From Terriglobales bacterium (GTDB lineage Bacteria > Acidobacteriota > Terriglobia > Terriglobales > Acidobacteriaceae), in the NCBI GenBank assembly GCA_035573675.1, contig DATMAB010000010.1, forward strand, positions 124,001 through 188,000: DNA of 64,000 bases. Reading direction: 5' to 3'. Of this stretch, positions 48,080-54,688 are shown piece by piece; the stretch's first letter is position 1; every line of letters starts with the position of its first letter. The notes under the pieces were generated by a model, which did no database searches, was not told where the DNA came from, and was given only the letters and a program-made list of their open reading frames with translations. The translations under genes were made by a program, and so were the position numbers.

Positions 48080-48236
48080 TGGATGCTCCCGGACGCGCCT
48101 TCGTCACATCCGCGCGCCGCGGCATCGGCGAGCCGGAGCGCAGTCCGCGCTCGTAGAGCTATTAAAGCACTGCTTGGCAAGATTGCATCCCCCATATGAA
48201 TTTCAATAGTTACCAAAGTGTGTTACGGGGGGGAGA

Positions 48237-50525
48237 TCAGGGAAGGGCTCCGGAAATAACAGGTTCAGCTGCAAGCATCGACCGAATCTGTCCCAGAGTA
48301 CCCTTCAATCCCAACGCTTTCTCCAGTGCTTCATCGATCTGCTCTCTAACCATGTCCGTCGCCATATGGGGCAATGGCTGAAGTTCCATGCGCTTCACAG
48401 AATCGAAGGCTCTGCCGAGCGCATCACGGCTTGATACAGCAAGCGCGCGAGGGTCGAGCACCATGATCTCTTCGAGGATCGGCTTCTTCATTTCAACCCA
48501 GGCCCCCTCAGTATCGACGCGCGCGGCCATGAGCGACAGCAGTCCCAAGGAGGAATTAAGCCAAAGAGCCAAGATGCCGTTGAGCGCATCTGCGCTGATT
48601 CCTTCTGCGTAGGTAGAGACGGGCCACCAGGTATTGGAGAGAACAGGCTCGTCAAACGTTATCGCCAACGTGCGGATCGTGTTCAGGCGAACTCTCTCGG
48701 AGATAAGGAGCTTGCCAGCGCGCGACCATAGGAGCGCAGCATCTCGAAGTGGTCGACCTTTCTTTGCCTTCGCCAGCGCCACCAAGTATCGGTTCGGACG
48801 CTGGCGGATTGTCCTGACGGTGTCGGTGTCATGCCCCCAAAAGGCAGCATACTCAGTCTCGCTGCTAGTGTCGTTGAAGCCGTCGGCGATGTCCCTCCTG
48901 TCCGGACCAAGATCGGCAATCGCCTTCAGTCTTACGAGCGGGACTTCCCCAATCACGCCAGCGCCCGGGACATACACGCGGGAACCTGCCAGGAAACACG
49001 CTGCCCGGCATACCTCCGTCTGAGCAAATGCTGCCCCCTGATTCCAGTTACCACTGCTGATCTGATCCGAGCCGCACAGGATGATTTCCCCATATTTGAC
49101 GTCGCCGGATTTGATTTCATCAGTCCCAACGCCATCAAGCGCGGCTCCTTCATGAGAACGAGCCAGAGCGGCAACCGTCAGTGCCTCAACACTATTTCTT
49201 GGCTTGGTCCAAAGGTTGACAACCTTAGTAGGATGGGCATTTCCGCCCGGCATCTGTTCGGCAACGATCAGGCATTCGCTCAGCGAAGTATTCTCCGAAA
49301 AATTCCACGATCCCGGCTGATGGCTGACGACTATGTACTTAACGTGATAGCTGTTTCCCAAGAGCGTACGCGTGGCCTGCCATGCCACGCCCGAAAGCAG
49401 CGCCCTCGGCAATACGAGAGCGAGCTTTCCGTTTGGTTTGAGCTTCTTGTGGGCGATAGCAACAAATGCCGAACCCAGTCCGGCCGTGATATTGGCAGGG
49501 AGACCCTCCTCGGCTACGACCCTCTTGAGGCGTGCCTGCATTCTCTTGCGTTCCTTCTCAGGTGCGTGTCCAAAGAGTAGGTTTCCCCCAACGCTGCGCG
49601 TGAAGGGCGGATTCATGACACACAAGTCCAACTCAGGAACCTCTACTGTGTCTGCGACTTCCCCGGACGCCGCCATTCTCTTCGGAGCGTCGGGCGGTCC
49701 GTACAAGTCTGCTTGCAACGCAACCTTCCGGCCGTGAATGAGGTCTAGGCTACCGAGGTAATCCTTGGGTCCGCCGATTGGTAGAGTCATCAACTTCATG
49801 TCCGAGAACACCACGTCAGGCTCATGCAGGGCGAGAGCCGAACCGGCTAGGTGGATGGCAGTCGGAACCACGTCGAGCCCCCACAAGACGTGCTCAACCA
49901 TCGCCTGGTGAACGGCCGGGATTGAGGGTAACCTCCCGTACTCGGTTCGTGCGCGGACATGATTCTCCAGAATCGTCTGTAGCGCAGCTTTCAAGAGCGT
50001 ACCTGTACCACAGGCCAAATCGGCGATGTGAAGCTTCTTGATAGCCTCTACATCGGACCAGTCAATATCTTCGTCATCGTAATCTAGGGTAAGTTTTAGG
50101 AGGAGAGCCGCGGCCGGAACTGTTGTGTAGAATGCTCCAAAATATTTCGCGTCCGCAAGGAGGCGATGATAAATGCGCCCCATTAGATCGTGGCGCAAAG
50201 CAGCCTTCTGTCCAGTTATACGGAGGGCCGACCGGGCCAGCATCCTGAGCGCCTTATCCGAATCTGGCACTCCAACCAGATCTCTGGCTATCTCTGTTGC
50301 CGTTGTGAAGATCGGTACATAGTCAATCTTGTCCTTGATGTAGGTCCACGCCTCAACCAATGATTCGGCGATATTGTTTCCTTCAGCGATACGGGAAAGC
50401 GCTTTGATCTTGTGATCACGGGTTGCAATGACTTGATGAAAAATCATTGCATTCACAAGGGTTAGAGCGGCAATGCGGCAAACCTTGAGCTCTGCATCAA
50501 CCGGAGGCATTTCTCTATTCTTCAT
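48237..50525 (-). CDS. N6-adenine DNA methyltransferase (large, R-M or defence type)
   Basis: About 762 residues from the ATG at 50525, which overlaps the end of the upstream gene by 11 bases; in-frame ATGs at 50537 and 50510 are alternatives. A helical N-terminus (1-130) leads to a gamma-type methylase core: YFGAFYTT (motif X-like, near 132), ADLACGTGTLL (SAM motif I, about 168-178), NPPF (catalytic motif IV, 305-308) and LVLPRALLSG. The C-terminal 350 residues look like a target-recognition region rather than a helicase or nuclease. The architecture resembles type I/II-G-like or BREX-class adenine methylases, but no specificity (HsdS), HsdR or PglZ gene is nearby. GC content is lower than in flanking genes, which suggests transfer. 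Confidence 0.88.
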   Translation of the reverse strand: MKNREMPPVDAELKVCRIAALTLVNAMIFHQVIATRDHKIKALSRIAEGNNIAESLVEAWTYIKDKIDYVPIFTTATEIARDLVGVPDSDKALRMLARSALRITGQKAALRHDLMGRIYHRLLADAKYFGAFYTTVPAAALLLKLTLDYDDEDIDWSDVEAIKKLHIADLACGTGTLLKAALQTILENHVRARTEYGRLPSIPAVHQAMVEHVLWGLDVVPTAIHLAGSALALHEPDVVFSDMKLMTLPIGGPKDYLGSLDLIHGRKVALQADLYGPPDAPKRMAASGEVADTVEVPELDLCVMNPPFTRSVGGNLLFGHAPEKERKRMQARLKRVVAEEGLPANITAGLGSAFVAIAHKKLKPNGKLALVLPRALLSGVAWQATRTLLGNSYHVKYIVVSHQPGSWNFSENTSLSECLIVAEQMPGGNAHPTKVVNLWTKPRNSVEALTVAALARSHEGAALDGVGTDEIKSGDVKYGEIILCGSDQISSGNWNQGAAFAQTEVCRAACFLAGSRVYVPGAGVIGEVPLVRLKAIADLGPDRRDIADGFNDTSSETEYAAFWGHDTDTVRTIRQRPNRYLVALAKAKKGRPLRDAALLWSRAGKLLISERVRLNTIRTLAITFDEPVLSNTWWPVSTYAEGISADALNGILALWLNSSLGLLSLMAARVDTEGAWVEMKKPILEEIMVLDPRALAVSSRDALGRAFDSVKRMELQPLPHMATDMVREQIDEALEKALGLKGTLGQIRSMLAAEPVISGALP

Positions 50526-51111
50526 CCTCCGCTTCATCTTCTGTCCTACCCCTTGTCTGGGCAGGAATACCAAGCGTTGCTCGGAAGCGTTGTGGCATCG
50601 CCTTTGTATGGACGAACGCGTCACTCGATCCATCAATGGCTCGCTCCAAGTCCTCGACGCATTTGACAACGACATCGTCGCTCACGATCAGCTCATACGC
50701 GCGCCGTAAGGATTCGGCAATATCATCGACGCTGCCATCGCTCCACGCATCACCGTCACCGGCCTCGGATACCACCCGTACTTGCATTCGCGATTGTCCG
50801 AGTCTCACCTTGAGCTCAGAAAACGTCTTTGTTGATCGAAGTTCCTTCGGATAGAGAACCGCCAGGCAGACCGGGGAGATACCATCTTCAACGCGCTGCT
50901 TGGCGTCTTTGAGCAGCGATACCTTTGCTGCTGGGCTGTCGAATCGACCTTCGACAACCAAGCGAATACCCATCAACTCTGCAACGGTGATGTCGGGTAG
51001 TCTCTTACCCTTGACAGACTTTCGGATGGTTTCAGGTACGGATACAAGCCCTCTGGTTTCAAGGAGTTCAGCCAGGGCCACGTTCACAACCTCTTCTCGG
51101 ACTTCGGGCAT
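50515..51111 (-). CDS. Methylase-linked protein, candidate PD-(D/E)XK-like nuclease
   Basis: 198 residues from ATG 51111, which has AAGGA 5 bases upstream; upstream codons lack quality. Residues 38-63 read LPD then ITVAELMGIRLVVEGRFD...K: an acidic pair (Pro39-Asp40), a hydrophobic strand ending in E54-G-R56 and a Lys63. That layout fits a PD-(D/E)XK-type core with Arg in the last place; it is an inference from pattern only. A following helix (SLLKDAKQRVEDGI) and strand (PVCLAVLYP) suit the fold, and an acidic tail ends the protein. It overlaps the methylase start, so the two are produced together, as a modification enzyme and its partner. Confidence 0.65.
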   Translation of the reverse strand: MPEVREEVVNVALAELLETRGLVSVPETIRKSVKGKRLPDITVAELMGIRLVVEGRFDSPAAKVSLLKDAKQRVEDGISPVCLAVLYPKELRSTKTFSELKVRLGQSRMQVRVVSEAGDGDAWSDGSVDDIAESLRRAYELIVSDDVVVKCVEDLERAIDGSSDAFVHTKAMPQRFRATLGIPAQTRGRTEDEAEDEE

Positions 51112-51151
51112 TAGTTCCTTAGGGCACGGACCGCTGCCGGGCGAGAACATA

Positions 51152-51409
51152 TCACATGCGGGGCTCCTGGCCGGACGTTGTAGGGATGTACCAGGAAGGC
51201 CCGTCGTTAGATTTCTTGGTTCCTCTGGTGAATTGACCCTGGATTTCCACAAGCTGTTTCGTGTACGACGACAATAGCAGCGCGCGCCAGGTTAGCTTTT
51301 CGATTTCAGGTACTAGCCTGCCGAAGATGGGGCCATAGGCCCCCGGCACGAACGGATCGGCTACCGGCCGGTGGTTGCTGGTTCGATCCCAGCCGCGCCT
51401 ACTAGGCTT
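51152..51409 (-). pseudogene. 3' fragment of an unrecognised gene upstream of the methylase pair
   Basis: The minus-strand frame ending at TGA 51152 (41 bases before the next gene's start) reads coding-like helical protein: GAYGPIFGRLVPEIEKLTW, then ALLLSSYTKQLVEIQGQFTRG. Going upstream the sensible sequence stops at about 51370, where a tRNA 3' end begins on the opposite strand; the frame closes at 51410. It looks like the C-terminal 70 or so residues of a gene cut by recombination at the tRNA sequence. A GTG at 51349 could still start a short product. Confidence 0.4.
51371..51404 (+). mobile_element. tRNA 3'-end fragment, probable attachment site
   Basis: GCTGG-TTCGATC-CCAGC (51377-51393) is a canonical T stem and loop, followed by a 7-base acceptor strand CGCGCCT, discriminator A and CTA in place of CCA. 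No matching 5' acceptor (AGGCGCG) or D arm precedes it. Isolated tRNA 3' ends are the usual scar of tRNA-targeted integration, so this is read as an att site at one edge of the accessory DNA. Confidence 0.55.
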
Positions 51410-51527
51410 CTAGCTTCTCATTTCACCGCCCATATTCCTGTTGTGCTCGTCCGCCAACCAGAAACGCAATCACTTTATTGTATTCCAAGTAGAAAACGTG
51501 AATTCGTAATTCGTAACAATTTTGCTA

Positions 51528-51557
51528 TTGACGAACAAAAGGCGAATATGCTATCCT
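51528..51557 (+). promoter_or_regulatory. Candidate sigma70-type promoter
   Basis: TTGACG (51528-51533), 18-bp spacer, TATCCT (51552-51557), in an AT-rich patch (51500-51560) that stands out from its surroundings. It precedes the small Cys/His genes at 51734 and 51877. Between 51410 and 51733 no gene is supported. Confidence 0.5.
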
Positions 51558-51733
51558 CCGTGTAAGTCTGCGGAAGGCTGGCAAGCCCGCCCGAGCCAGC
51601 CCGCTAAGGAGGACCGCCAACCCCAAGCTTTTCAATATTTTCCCGCTAAGTCCAGCCGCATCAAAGATTTTCCGGGATTTTGTGTCGCAAACCAATGATT
51701 CCATTGGACCAGGGGGGAGGGGGAGGGTACACC

Positions 51734-51880
51734 GTGACCATACCGATCTGCCAGCACATCAAAACCGACGGAAGGCGCTGTCCCGCAACAGCGGAGCGTT
51801 GTTGCGGACCGAAGAAACGACTCCCCAGGGCCCCCGCAGCGCCGAAATCCCTCGCCAAGGAGCAACAACGAAAGCTATGA
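51734..51880 (+). CDS. Small Cys/His 'KTDGRRC' protein, possibly truncated
   Basis: 48 residues from GTG 51734. It opens ICQHIKTDGRRCPATAERCC, the same C-x9-C start as the next gene (CSYMKTDGKRC), but lacks the final Cys-xx-His and instead runs into a basic Ala/Pro/Lys tail, as if frame-shifted or deleted. Its stop overlaps the next ATG (ATGA). The family is a putative zinc-knuckle type common in Acidobacteriota; role unknown. Confidence 0.55.
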   Translation: MTIPICQHIKTDGRRCPATAERCCGPKKRLPRAPAAPKSLAKEQQRKL

Positions 51881-52308
51881 ACGCGATTCCTCAATGTAGC
51901 TACATGAAGACCGATGGAAAGCGATGCGGGTCCCCCGCAATGCGCGGCAAGCGTCTGTGTTTCTTCCACGGACGCCAGGCGCCCCGCATCCGCAAGCTGG
52001 CTCGCGACGGCCGCTGGCTCCCTGCCTTCCACGCCGACCGGCCAGACCTACACCATCTGCGACCCGCAGAACTCGGGTACCACCAACCTGGTGAGCCGCA
52101 TCGGGGGAATGGTGATCGACGACGACGGCCTGCTGTGGGTGCCGGTAGTGGCCAATGTGACCAACCGCAGCGTCTCCTGCACGCCGCAGGTGGACAACGA
52201 CGGCAATGCGGTGCCGTGGGACGGCAGCGGGACTTCCTACACGTACAGTTCAACGCTGTATCTGTTGTCCGTAGACTCCGGCGGGACCGTATCCACGATC
52301 CAGCTTGA
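51877..52308 (+). pseudogene. Small Cys/His 'KTDGKRC' protein gene, split by insertion (5' part)
   Basis: From ATG 51877 the protein reads C7-x9-C17-x10-C28-xx-H31 (CSYMKTDGKRCG..., CFFHGR), a plausible zinc knuckle, then QAPRIRKLARDGRWLPAFHA to about base 52037. Past that point the frame leaves the family and reads nonsense to a stop at 52308, while another frame becomes coding. The missing C-terminus (PLEVMLAETYRLVSEGRVSL...) is found at 54437-54566, after 2.3 kb of unrelated DNA. Confidence 0.65.
51967..52037 (+). repeat. 71-bp direct repeat, left copy
   Basis: CACGGACG...ACGCCGA; identical to 54366-54436 except for two bases (C/G at position 9 and T/C near position 57). It flanks the 2.3 kb block that interrupts the Cys/His protein gene. 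Confidence 0.9.
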
Positions 52309-53443
52309 CTCCACGGGCGGCAGCGGCACGAACTGGAACGCGGCGATGCCGAAGTTCAGTGTGCGGAATGCGATCATCCCGGACGGCGTGGGCGGAGTGC
52401 TGGTCTCGGTGGTCAGGCCCAACGGGAGCAACCCCATTTACCGTTCGAACGGTGTCCAATACAGTACGCCTCTGAGTTCGGTGGACCAGATGCTCATGGG
52501 TGAGAGCGAGACAGTGTTCGCGGCCGGGGTGTTCGGCGGCGTAACTGCCGTGAATCTTCAGACGGGGTCGACTTTGTGGCGGCCGGACGCCGTAAACCTT
52601 ACGCTCGCGTTGGGTGACGGGACGTTAGTTGCAGAGAATGCATTGTCACTCGTTCGGTACGATACTGTCGGCTCGGCGAGCGACTTCGTCGGTGAGACAT
52701 CGACTTATGCCTCAACTTTCCTGGGTGGAGACCTCTGGAGCGGCGGCGGCTCGGTCGGCGGCCTCGCCCTGATTGCAAGCGAATGTCATCCCCAGGGCGA
52801 CCCAACCATGCCTTGCTGGATAGGTCCTAACTGGGCGGCAATGTCCGGAAATCAGCAAAAGCAGAATGCGCCACCAGCCCGAGTAGAATTGCGAGTTCAT
52901 CGCGTAACGCAAGCACCCGCTCTGGTGGAGCATATCTTGCAGCTTGCAGATACGGCAGTTCGTTATTGGTCGTGGCAGGGAGTCAGACTGGATTGGGACG
53001 GCGTCGTCCGACCCATCGACCAATGTCTGATAAATCCTGGGAACTGTCTCGACACGGATGACGAGAACATTCTCAACCTCTCGACTGATACGGTCTTCCG
53101 TTGGCAGCAGTCGCTGCGCGTGTTCGAGAAATTCACAGATAGAAAGGGTATCGACGCAGTCTTCATCAACAGCGTGCTTGGAAGCAATGATGCTCTCATT
53201 ACGCTGCACTTCCCGACCACGAGTTGCTGCAACTATTCACTTAGGAAGTCGAACGTGGTGGTGGCGTCAAGTGATGCGGACAATGCGCTTGACCATGAAA
53301 TCGGCCATGTGTTTCAGCTCGACCACACTCTCAATCCTTTCAATCTCATGTGCGACCCAAGCGTTCTCGTTTGTGTGGGTAGATTCTTGAACGATGCCCA
53401 ACAGAGTACGGTCCGAGTCGAAGCTCCGAAGCTGGCGAGGTAG
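52109..53443 (+). CDS. 5'-truncated propeller-like protein with C-terminal metzincin-like site
   Basis: Coding sequence in this frame starts at the repeat junction (about 52038), so the true N-terminus was lost; ATG 52109 is the first start inside it, and the open frame also runs back in a shadow frame to 51914. The first 250 residues are beta-rich with VNLQTGSTLWRPD (PQQ/NHL propeller-like). Near the end comes HEIGHVFQLDH, which has the HExxHxxxxxH spacing of metzincin zinc proteases (third His in place, the usual Gly replaced by Gln), followed by NPFNLMC, a possible Met-turn. No signal peptide remains, so the present copy may be inactive. Base composition falls toward the 3' end. Confidence 0.6.
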   Translation: MVIDDDGLLWVPVVANVTNRSVSCTPQVDNDGNAVPWDGSGTSYTYSSTLYLLSVDSGGTVSTIQLDSTGGSGTNWNAAMPKFSVRNAIIPDGVGGVLVSVVRPNGSNPIYRSNGVQYSTPLSSVDQMLMGESETVFAAGVFGGVTAVNLQTGSTLWRPDAVNLTLALGDGTLVAENALSLVRYDTVGSASDFVGETSTYASTFLGGDLWSGGGSVGGLALIASECHPQGDPTMPCWIGPNWAAMSGNQQKQNAPPARVELRVHRVTQAPALVEHILQLADTAVRYWSWQGVRLDWDGVVRPIDQCLINPGNCLDTDDENILNLSTDTVFRWQQSLRVFEKFTDRKGIDAVFINSVLGSNDALITLHFPTTSCCNYSLRKSNVVVASSDADNALDHEIGHVFQLDHTLNPFNLMCDPSVLVCVGRFLNDAQQSTVRVEAPKLAR

Positions 53444-53448
53444 TTCAC

Positions 53449-53772
53449 ATGCGAGACAGAGGCGGATGGCGGAGCGAGGTACTGGCGGGACTCTTGGTCG
53501 GCTTCCTGTTCGCGCTGGCGTTGCGTTTTCTCCTGGTCCTACCGCTTTGGTCATACTACATCGCTAGCCCTACAGCGCAGGAGCAGTGCGATCAGATACC
53601 CGTTGGTGCGTCCCGTTCAGAGGTTCTAAGCACGATTGCGGGTTCCACTCCCCCCGAGGAGCTCTTGACGATTGACGGTCGAATTCAGGTATCCCGTAGA
53701 GATCGGATGTGTGTGATTGAATTCGATGCGTCCAATAGTCGGGTAGCCTCAAAAGTGGTGGGGGGGAGGTAG
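53449..53772 (+). CDS. Small membrane-anchored protein, BamE/SmpA-like core
   Basis: 107 residues, starting 5 bases after the metzincin-like frame. One transmembrane segment (about residues 10-35) precedes IPVGASRSEVLSTIAG, the kind of opening seen in SmpA/OmlA-type (BamE-like) folds, and CVIEFDASNSRVASKVV. Function unknown; its pairing with the next gene, which has the same plan, suggests a duplicated pair. Confidence 0.6.
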   Translation: MRDRGGWRSEVLAGLLVGFLFALALRFLLVLPLWSYYIASPTAQEQCDQIPVGASRSEVLSTIAGSTPPEELLTIDGRIQVSRRDRMCVIEFDASNSRVASKVVGGR

Positions 53773-53781
53773 AAGCGTTCA

Positions 53782-54135
53782 ATGATGAGAAGTCACTCAC
53801 CGCTGGCAGATCGGTCGCGGCTGCTTTCGATTCGAACGGCTGTCACAACAGTCCTCGTTTTCCTAATCCTGAGCCTCGGACCAGTTTTGCAGTGCTGGCG
53901 CGACCTTTCGCGCTTCAGTGTCTTTGCCGCTGTACAAATGGGCATGAGCCAATCCGAAGCCAGAGAGGTTCTTAGCCGGAACGGGATAGTGTGTGATCTA
54001 ACCCGCAAACCGGGTGGCTCTGATTGCTTCTTTTCTGACTTCTGGCGAGAGTATGGAATTAGAGTCGACCCGGACAATAAGACGGTAACTTCCAAGTACT
54101 TCCGGTTCAGAAGAACCCCTCGGGATCTGATTTAG
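53782..54135 (+). CDS. Small membrane-anchored protein, BamE/SmpA-like core
   Basis: 117 residues, 9 bases after the previous gene. One transmembrane segment (about 20-40), then VQMGMSQSEAREVLSRNGI, two Cys and a strand-rich end (YGIRVDPDNKTVTSKYFRF). Same layout as the preceding protein although the sequences are distant. Lower GC than the core genes. Confidence 0.6.
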   Translation: MMRSHSPLADRSRLLSIRTAVTTVLVFLILSLGPVLQCWRDLSRFSVFAAVQMGMSQSEAREVLSRNGIVCDLTRKPGGSDCFFSDFWREYGIRVDPDNKTVTSKYFRFRRTPRDLI

Positions 54136-54299
54136 GGTTCACCACGCTAGCTGAAGTCTATCGTGGCAAGCGGCTGAGTATCCCGAATGGGGCGTCTCGA
54201 CCGCACCTGACTTTTGTCTACCTCCGTCGTTACGTCCTTAACCTGTGCGCTTTCCGCACACAATTGTTTTCCTTCTGAACCTGCCCTACTCTCCGCAAC

Positions 54300-54566
54300 G
54301 TGGCAGGCATCACTCTCACTCAGGCGCAGGCTGAGCTCGACCTGCCGCGCAACCTACGCCAAGCTCACGGACGGCAGGCGCCCCGCATCCGCAAGCTGGC
54401 TCGCGACGGCCGCTGGCTCCCCGCCTTCCACGCCGAGCGCCCCCTCGAGGTGATGCTCGCCGAAACCTACCGCCTGGTCTCCGAAGGCCGGGTCTCGCTG
54501 CGCCAGGCGCAACTGCTCATCTACGCCATGCAGATCACCGCTGCTTGCGAGAAGAGCAGATCCTAG
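54300..54566 (+). pseudogene. 3' part of the split Cys/His protein gene
   Basis: From about 54366 the frame resumes QAPRIRKLARDGRWLPAFHAERPLE..., identical to the 5' part over the repeat, and continues with the family C-terminus LAETYRLVSEGRVSLRQAQLLIYAMQ to the stop. The upstream part from GTG 54300 (MAGITLTQAQAELD) does not belong to it; that opening resembles small phage proteins, so the junction may involve phage DNA (weak). The 54136-54299 gap holds nothing I can identify. Confidence 0.6.
54366..54436 (+). repeat. 71-bp direct repeat, right copy
   Basis: Matches 51967-52037 at 69 of 71 positions; right boundary of the block inserted in the Cys/His gene. Confidence 0.9.
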
Positions 54567-54597
54567 GTCTCGGGTGTCGGAAAGCGGATGTTCACTG

Positions 54598-54688
54598 GTT
54601 CGTAGTTCGCAGTTCATAGTTCATAGATCGCAGTTCAGAGTTCGCAAGTTCAAAGTTCATTATCCGCAGTTCGTAGTTCACAGTTCAC
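54598..54688. repeat. AGTTCAT/AGTTCGC heptamer repeat
   Basis: At least ten imperfect heptamers (GTAGTTC, GCAGTTC, ATAGTTC, AGAGTTC) in a row, ending at the lolC/E stop. Marks the right edge of the accessory region. Confidence 0.85.

What the first reader, a model, noticed from the sequence alone, without database searches (positions are those of the whole stretch)
48237..51111. Methylase coupled to a candidate PD-(D/E)XK-type partner, without HsdR, HsdS or PglZ
Seen: a 762-residue N6-adenine methylase (ADLACGTGTLL, NPPF) whose start overlaps the end of a 198-residue gene with PD(39-40)...E54-G-R56 and Lys63. Known: adenine methylases of this size belong to R-M and BREX/DISARM-like systems, but those have recognisable HsdS/HsdR, BrxC/PglZ or helicase partners, none of which is here. 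Inference: a compact two-gene modification/restriction or defence unit, possibly with a third gene cut off upstream (51152-51409). Lower GC and the mobile context support horizontal transfer. This is the window's best candidate for an under-described system.
Basis: partly seen in the sequence, partly recalled or inferred. Interest (0 to 1): 0.75.

Follow-up and report, generated by a model that had tools for sequence, protein, structure and literature searches.

The report
Type IIG restriction enzyme split in two
Two adjoining bacterial genes encode, as separate proteins, the predicted DNA-cutting and DNA-marking halves of an enzyme that many of its relatives make as one chain, a recurring split that may help show how such one-piece restriction enzymes arise.

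Summary
In detail: a 198-aa gene (50515-51111, -) directly precedes an adenine methylase gene (48237 to 50510-50537, -). No HsdR, HsdS or PglZ gene was seen among ten neighbouring ORFs scanned. The two proteins are collinear with the halves of one ~950-1000-aa polypeptide in relatives. That chain has the Type IIG layout: N-terminal PD-(D/E)XK-like nuclease, helical linker, gamma-class N6-adenine methylase, C-terminal recognition domain. A fused relative's model has Type IIG BpuSI as top Foldseek hit by E-value.

The split is not a frameshift of this genome. Of 88 loci, 46 carry one chain and 22 (window included) two genes cut at the same linker, often with ATGA or TAATG junctions. Reduced to 66 distinct loci, the tree needs six fused/split changes and rejects one split clade (AU p 4e-6). 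The small gene is under purifying selection in the split pairs that could be measured. P39, D40, E54, R73 are invariant in 66 of 66; the catalytic-lysine position is K in 51, E in 13, R in 2 (window, sister). No third gene is shared.

Best reading: a two-subunit Type IIG-like restriction-modification enzyme, probably brought in by horizontal transfer. Activity is untested. Novelty: new variant of a known kind.

The parts
50515..51111 (-). R subunit: 198-aa PD-(D/E)XK-like nuclease domain plus helices of the connector, encoded as a separate protein
50944..50997 (-). PD(39-40)...E54-G-R56 motif; P, D and E invariant in 66 of 66 distinct relatives, third position K/E/R
48237..50525 (-). M~S subunit: gamma-class N6-adenine methylase with C-terminal recognition domain, 762 aa as read (start alternatives 50510 and 50537)
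49992..50021 (-). methylase motif I DLACGTGTLL
49602..49613 (-). methylase motif IV NPPF, invariant in 66 of 66
50510..50537 (-). gene junction: three candidate methylase starts around the TAG of the small gene; same linker position as the junction of 20 other distinct split loci
48080..54684 (.). 6605-nt segment between the genes I call lolD and lolC (names recalled) that holds the pair; a lolC match lies 10-1211 nt from the lolD match in 13 of 19 family relatives

Best explanation
The pair is a two-subunit (R + M~S) Type IIG-like restriction-modification enzyme. The ~200-aa N-terminal PD-(D/E)XK nuclease domain, which in Type IIG enzymes is fused to the methylase, is here a separate protein whose gene runs into the methylase gene, probably with translational coupling. 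Proposed mechanism: the M~S protein recognises an adenine-containing site through its C-terminal domain and methylates it with SAM. The R protein docks on it through connector helices that it keeps (residues ~147-179). The complex cuts unmethylated DNA with Mg2+ at a fixed distance from the site, without ATP. Shown here: collinearity with a fused chain, conserved motifs, recurrent split at one linker, purifying selection on both genes in measurable split pairs, Type IIG-like fold of a fused relative. Inferred: complex formation, cleavage, recognition site, and that this copy is active despite Arg in place of the usual Lys.
For: Relatives carry both proteins in one ORF; the window proteins are 41% (methylase) and 35% (small) identical to the Sulfuricystis chain. 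Of 88 loci, 46 are single ORFs and 22 are split at the linker (about q181-201) with a small gene of 189-202 aa and a methylase of 746-791 aa; ATGA/GTGA junctions in 10 and TAATG in 3 of the 21 distinct split loci. A Shine-Dalgarno-like core before a candidate methylase start in 14 of 21 split loci, against 6 of 45 fused loci scored at the linker in any frame. Six fused/split changes on the tree, five forced by starred branches, shuffled mean 18; one split clade rejected, p-AU 3.7e-6. dN/dS 0.051-0.105 (small) and 0.052-0.106 (methylase) in six of nine pairs tried. P39, D40, E54, R73 in 66/66, E7 in 65/66. Small-protein model pLDDT 89.9, structural matches headed by Hjc, TT1808 and I-Ssp6803I. 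Fused relative L041: pTM 0.89; BpuSI is the top Foldseek hit, E 1.2e-16; DrdV aligned from model residue 1 to 917, Z 21.9, 650 residues. Of 88 loci, 84 show the nuclease part by tblastn, three others start within 19 nt of a contig end, and L008 shows it in the alignment. No neighbour gene family occurs at more than 7 of 66 loci.
Against: No biochemical data. The small protein's fold matches are modest: best Z 6.5 with CoaBC-like folds tied at 6.0, and no Foldseek hit at E <= 0.001; profile search against PDB sequences gave nothing convincing (best hit a spike-protein segment, E 0.0059; AF1548, E 0.019). The BpuSI match has a TM-score of only 0.32-0.35, in VIA-align 2 it covers 140-938, i.e. 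not the nuclease, and the highest Z there belongs to CamA, which matches the methylase part alone. The window and its sister have Arg where 51 of 66 have Lys. Pfam and PADLOC do not match a Type IIG model over the full length. dN/dS was saturated for the window's own pair, and three of the six measurable pairs share members. Most loci are metagenome bins. No Shine-Dalgarno-like core in 7 of 21 split loci. In genome G050 a distant relative (25-28% identity) has the nuclease part and linker but no detectable methylase core.
Confidence: 0.75

Rival explanations
1. A once-fused Type IIG gene broken by a frameshift in this genome: a decaying, possibly methylation-only relic.
For: 46 of 88 relatives are single ORFs; the two frames meet in a short A/G-rich stretch with near-repeats; Arg replaces the usual Lys; mobile debris lies nearby.
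Against: The sister locus L077 in another Acidobacteria bin (63% methylase identity) is split at the same place, and so are 19 further distinct loci; both frames stay open over 198 and more than 750 codons with the methylase motifs intact; the small gene is under purifying selection in measurable split pairs, though not measurable for the window itself.
Confidence: 0.12
2. A methylase with a nuclease-dead partner: the small protein is a structural or regulatory subunit and the unit only methylates (epigenetic role).
For: Lys replaced by Glu in 13 and Arg in 2 of 66; the recognition domain is only moderately less conserved than the methylase core, which a fixed-target epigenetic methylase would explain; the highest-Z fold matches of the methylase part are CamA.
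Against: D40, E54 and R73 stay invariant in all 66; Glu at the Lys position occurs in active enzymes such as BamHI (recalled, not tested).
Confidence: 0.2
3. A fragment of a larger multi-gene defence system (BREX, DISARM, MADS) whose other parts are lost here.
For: PADLOC mad2 and PglX models give weak hits to the window methylase, DrmMI to a relative; 2 of 77 near neighbours of split loci match mad3 (not located in the follow-up of ten neighbours).
Against: The NCBIfam MAD2 hit scores 21 bits against a cut-off of 720; no neighbour gene family occurs at more than 7 of 66 loci; the ten window neighbours scanned show no such partner.
Confidence: 0.03

Closest known systems
Type IIG restriction enzymes (BpuSI, Eco57I, MmeI/DrdV)
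   Same: Order nuclease (~200 aa, PD-(D/E)XK), helical connector, gamma-class N6-adenine methylase, recognition domain; BpuSI is the top Foldseek hit of the fused relative by E-value
   Different: Here the nuclease domain is a separate protein; [quoted passage not shown]
HVO_A0006 + HVO_A0237 of Haloferax volcanii
   Same: PMC4389544 (abstract and passages seen) proposed a split Type IIG: an N-terminal nuclease fragment and a methylase lacking it
   Different: Those genes lie apart, each next to predicted transposition genes, and a 2018 deletion study (PMC5867850, passages seen) found no change of 6mA methylation without them; here the genes adjoin and the arrangement recurs. Whether they are of the same sequence family was not tested
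Type I R-M (HsdR + HsdM + HsdS)
   Same: Separate restriction and modification subunits; overlapping genes, as reported for hsdM/hsdS (start of the abstract of PMC3510504 seen in listings)
   Different: No ATP motor and no separate S subunit found
Type IIB (BcgI, BsaXI)
   Same: Two-protein gamma-methylase R-M enzymes without motor (PMC3874165, section 36)
   Different: There R and M are fused and S is separate; here R is separate and M and S are fused

Membership tests
Type IIG restriction-modification enzymes | gamma-class amino-methyltransferase core, motif order X - I - IV, NPPF/Y | tested here: met
   YT (motif X region, name recalled), DxACGTG and NPPF in this order; NPPF 66/66; M.TaqI among the structural matches of a fused relative
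Type IIG restriction-modification enzymes | ~200-aa domain with PD-(D/E)XK motif on the N-terminal side of the methylase | tested here: met
   P39, D40, E54 in 66/66, third position K/E/R; collinear with the N-terminus of the fused chain
Type IIG restriction-modification enzymes | PD-(D/E)XK fold of that domain | tested here: inconclusive
   confident model with PD-(D/E)XK proteins at the top, but Z at most 6.5, unrelated folds tied, and no Foldseek hit at E <= 0.001
Type IIG restriction-modification enzymes | nuclease and methylase in one polypeptide | tested here: not met
   window: two genes; 46 of 88 relatives do meet it
Type IIG restriction-modification enzymes | C-terminal target recognition domain | tested here: met
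   fused relative aligns with CamA, M.BseCI and MmeI through residue ~920; the window methylase aligns over that range
Type IIG restriction-modification enzymes | cleavage at fixed distance from a recognition site, without ATP | not testable with these tools
   needs enzymology; no helicase family hit in either protein
Type I restriction-modification | HsdR motor subunit and HsdS subunit | tested here: not met
   none among ten window neighbours scanned; none shared near 66 relatives
BREX / DISARM / MADS | PglZ, BrxC, Drm helicase or MAD partner genes | tested here: not met
   window neighbours; MAD2 model 21.4 bits against cut-off 720; 2 of 77 neighbours of other split loci match mad3

The most novel reading that the evidence does not exclude
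This family is a living intermediate between Type I-style separate nuclease subunits and one-chain Type IIG enzymes. The nuclease has repeatedly been detached from, or attached to, the methylase at one linker, and the split form is fully working: the free methylase protects the genome alone and restriction starts only when the R subunit joins it, so restriction can be delayed during establishment in a new host.
Probability: 0.35. Interest if true: 0.75.

Novelty: new variant of a known kind. Interest (0 to 1): 0.55.

Why it matters
PMC6158711 (passages seen) proposed that Type IIG enzymes arose by fusing a nuclease domain to a methylase-specificity protein; its own nuclease-methylase fusions made from Type I parts were not restriction active. 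This family holds natural split and fused forms of one enzyme with several transitions on the tree, so that step becomes testable: swap R subunits, fuse or separate them, and compare activity. It also suggests that the N-terminal nuclease of Type IIG enzymes need not be covalently attached. Annotation by the libraries used here names only the methylase half.

Tried and rejected
Frameshift in this genome alone: rejected because 20 other distinct loci are split at the same place. Third gene 51152-51409: no family hit, no homologue. Shared neighbour gene: 717 ORFs around 66 loci; the largest cluster joined 7 loci at scattered distances; four related split loci (L063, L074, L075, L086) share a gene 38-152 nt upstream on the other strand, which looks like a common chromosomal site (four of the 77 scanned neighbours carry phosphoribosyltransferase domains). 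Defence-island enrichment: I scanned 77 of 101 listed near neighbours of split loci (none from the window). PADLOC matched 87 families at E <= 1e-10, of which 25 were listed: PsyrT in 4 members, mad3 in 2, and single members for Type II methylase, SspA, DndA, OLD/GajA/AriA, Ppl, DEDDh, PDC-M54A, PDC-S48 and PDC-M72A models; Pfam found phage integrase in 2. A follow-up of ten large neighbours placed the OLD-like protein beside L080 and Ppl beside L066 but not the methylase or mad3 hits. There was no control set, so enrichment is undecided. Match of the small protein to solved structures by sequence: none convincing. Literature for an adjoining split Type IIG pair: in the searches I recognised only the Haloferax hypothesis; most subscription papers and REBASE were out of reach. 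Direction of change (which state is ancestral) is open because the tree is unrooted.

Rows dropped: L046 (in-frame stop at the same linker), L062 (identical second copy on the contig of L061) and L093 (identical to L014) (one search confirms both identities), L008 for the AU test and one distance test. 19 of 88 loci were left out of the counts because they are cut by contig ends or carry other breaks; some of these also break at the linker (L078, L087).

Full report
WHAT IS THERE. On the minus strand a 198-aa ORF (51111-50515) is followed at once by a methylase ORF ending at 48237. The methylase can start at 50537, 50525 or 50510 (766, 762 or 757 aa). The first has a Shine-Dalgarno-like AGGA 6 nt upstream; the last matches the start of the sister locus. 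The pair has 55.4% GC in a 64.8% GC window. Pfam finds N6_Mtase in the large protein and nothing in the small one.

RELATIVES SHOW ONE CHAIN. The small protein was found in 4 of 297 genomes searched in the phylum, the window's own included, and in 2 plasmid records. In plasmids of Aminobacter (947 aa) and Sulfuricystis (971 aa), and in genomes G203 and G065 (975 and 970 aa), small protein and methylase are one ORF. The fourth genome, G050, has a distant nuclease-plus-linker ORF of 300 aa without detectable methylase core. The alignment places the small protein on residues ~1-190 and the methylase on the rest, meeting in the linker.

BUT THE SPLIT IS REAL. One scan of genome contigs with patterns taken only from the methylase part gave 79 relatives; one scan of viral contigs gave 3. 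With the plasmid and phylum relatives and the window, 88 loci were classified: 46 single ORFs of at least 900 aa (L008 runs off its record), 22 split at the linker, one more (L046) with an in-frame stop there, and 19 cut by contig ends or with other breaks. Split small genes have 189-202 aa, methylases 746-791 aa. Of 21 distinct split loci 10 have ATGA/GTGA and 3 TAATG junctions. A Shine-Dalgarno-like core before a candidate start occurs in 14 of 21; a test in any frame at the linker of 45 fused loci gives 6. The last 8 residues of the small proteins are 49% acidic, against 31% at about that place in fused chains; these codons overlap the A/G-rich stretch before the methylase start. Split loci are labelled Acidobacteriota, Chloroflexota, Calditrichota, Bacteroidota, Pseudomonadota, Thermodesulfobacteriota, Myxococcota and others by record title.

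SEVERAL TRANSITIONS. On a tree of the methylase part (66 rows; LG+G4, quick search) the fused/split label needs six changes, five forced by starred branches, against a shuffled mean of 18. Holding the 21 split rows as one clade is rejected (65 rows, p-AU 3.7e-6). The window's nearest row is L077 (split, 63% identity), then L055 (fused). L055 carries DDD-Met at the linker, as if two genes had been joined in frame; this is one case, and the direction of the other changes is open.

THE SMALL GENE IS KEPT. Of nine split pairs tried, six had measurable dS for both genes: dN/dS 0.051-0.105 for the small gene and 0.052-0.106 for the methylase; three of the six share members. The other three, the window with L077 included, were saturated for one or both genes. 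dS exceeds 1 in most pairs, so values are rough. Distances of nuclease and methylase parts agree (Mantel r 0.907 in 21 split, 0.918 in 44 fused; best of 999 shuffles 0.455 and 0.414), so no swapping is evident. By tblastn 84 of 88 loci have the nuclease part; three of the other four begin within 19 nt of a contig end, and L008 shows the motif in the alignment.

NUCLEASE DOMAIN. P39, D40, E54 and R73 are invariant in 66 of 66 and E7 occurs in 65; position 56 is K in 51, E in 13, R in 2 (window, L077). The model of the small protein (61-row alignment, pLDDT 89.9) has helix 6-19, strands 42-46 and 49-57, helix 62-75, strand 81-87, helix 97-106, strand 109-115, then helices 128-144, 147-168 and 172-179. 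VIA-align 2 ranks Holliday-junction resolvases, TT1808 and I-Ssp6803I first (Z 6.3-6.5), which I know as PD-(D/E)XK folds, but CoaBC-like folds are tied at Z 6.0, and Foldseek gave no hit at E <= 0.001. The fold match alone is suggestive only; with the invariant motif and the collinearity it makes a nuclease the best guess. Whether Arg56 still supports cleavage is unknown.

METHYLASE AND RECOGNITION DOMAIN. DxACGTG and NPPF (66 of 66) stand in gamma-class order. The fused relative L041 was folded (pTM 0.89, pLDDT 86.3). Foldseek's best hit by E-value is Type IIG BpuSI (1.2e-16; TM-score only 0.32-0.35), followed by CamA, BrxX, M.BseCI and DrdV. VIA-align 2 puts CamA first (292-921, Z 25.8), BpuSI at Z 22.0 over 140-938, and DrdV at Z 21.9 over 1-917. 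BrxX begins at model residue 145, so the small subunit holds the nuclease plus the first connector helices; this suggests docking by completing the helical bundle (inference). The C-terminal region is moderately less conserved than the methylase core (40-residue block means 0.43-0.62 against 0.56-0.71), so members may share a related target (inference).

CONTEXT. The pair sits between genes I call lolD (an ABC ATPase) and lolC (names recalled), 6605 nt apart here. In 13 of 19 family relatives a lolC match lies 10-1211 nt from the lolD match; the other six, among them the best lolD hit by E-value (L098), showed none in the ~3.6 kb fetched. L077 has neither gene in its locus. A 30-nt exact copy of the 3' end of tRNA-Arg(TCT), whose gene is on another contig, lies at 51373-51402. 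Arrival by horizontal transfer is likely; the agent is unknown. No neighbour gene family occurs at more than 7 of 66 loci.

COMPARISON WITH PRINT. PMC3874165 describes Type IIG as gamma-methylases with N-terminal cleavage domains and lists only forms with R joined to M. A split Type IIG was proposed for Haloferax, then not supported by deletion data on methylation. PMC6158711 proposes nuclease fusion as the last step to Type IIG. In the listings I recognised no paper on adjoining split pairs; I saw passages of only four papers, and most subscription papers and REBASE are outside that library.

VERDICT. A split, two-subunit Type IIG-like unit: new variant of a known kind. It works like a Type IIG enzyme on paper but fails one defining feature, the single chain. 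Activity, recognition site and subunit binding are predictions.

Noticed in passing
window 51373-51402: Exact 30-nt copy of the 3' end of tRNA-Arg(TCT), whose intact gene lies on another contig of the genome: a possible attachment-site remnant.
   Followed up: partly
window 51967-52043 and 54366-54442: A 77-nt direct repeat (95%) brackets most of a metallopeptidase-like ORF (51914-53443), as if a 2.4-kb piece had been inserted into or duplicated within a small Cys-containing ORF.
   Followed up: no
window 48080-54684: Genes I call lolC and lolD, close together in 13 of 19 family relatives, are 6.6 kb apart here.
   Followed up: yes
L055 6992-9823: A fused member inside the split-rich part of the tree keeps an in-frame DDD-Met at the linker, like two genes joined.
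   Followed up: partly
L054, L057, L060, L063, L074, L075, L086 and six fused loci: Glu replaces the PD-(D/E)XK lysine in 13 of 66 members, in both split and fused forms.
   Followed up: partly
L011 3605-4507: Genome G050 has a distant 300-aa ORF with the nuclease part and linker but no detectable methylase core on its contig.
   Followed up: partly
L006, L007: Fused relatives sit on plasmids typed as mobilizable, with type IV secretion genes (L006) or PRTRC genes (L007) in the fetched stretch.
   Followed up: no
L080 10324-12339: An OLD/AriA/GajA-like defence ATPase lies about 1.6 kb downstream of one split pair.
   Followed up: no
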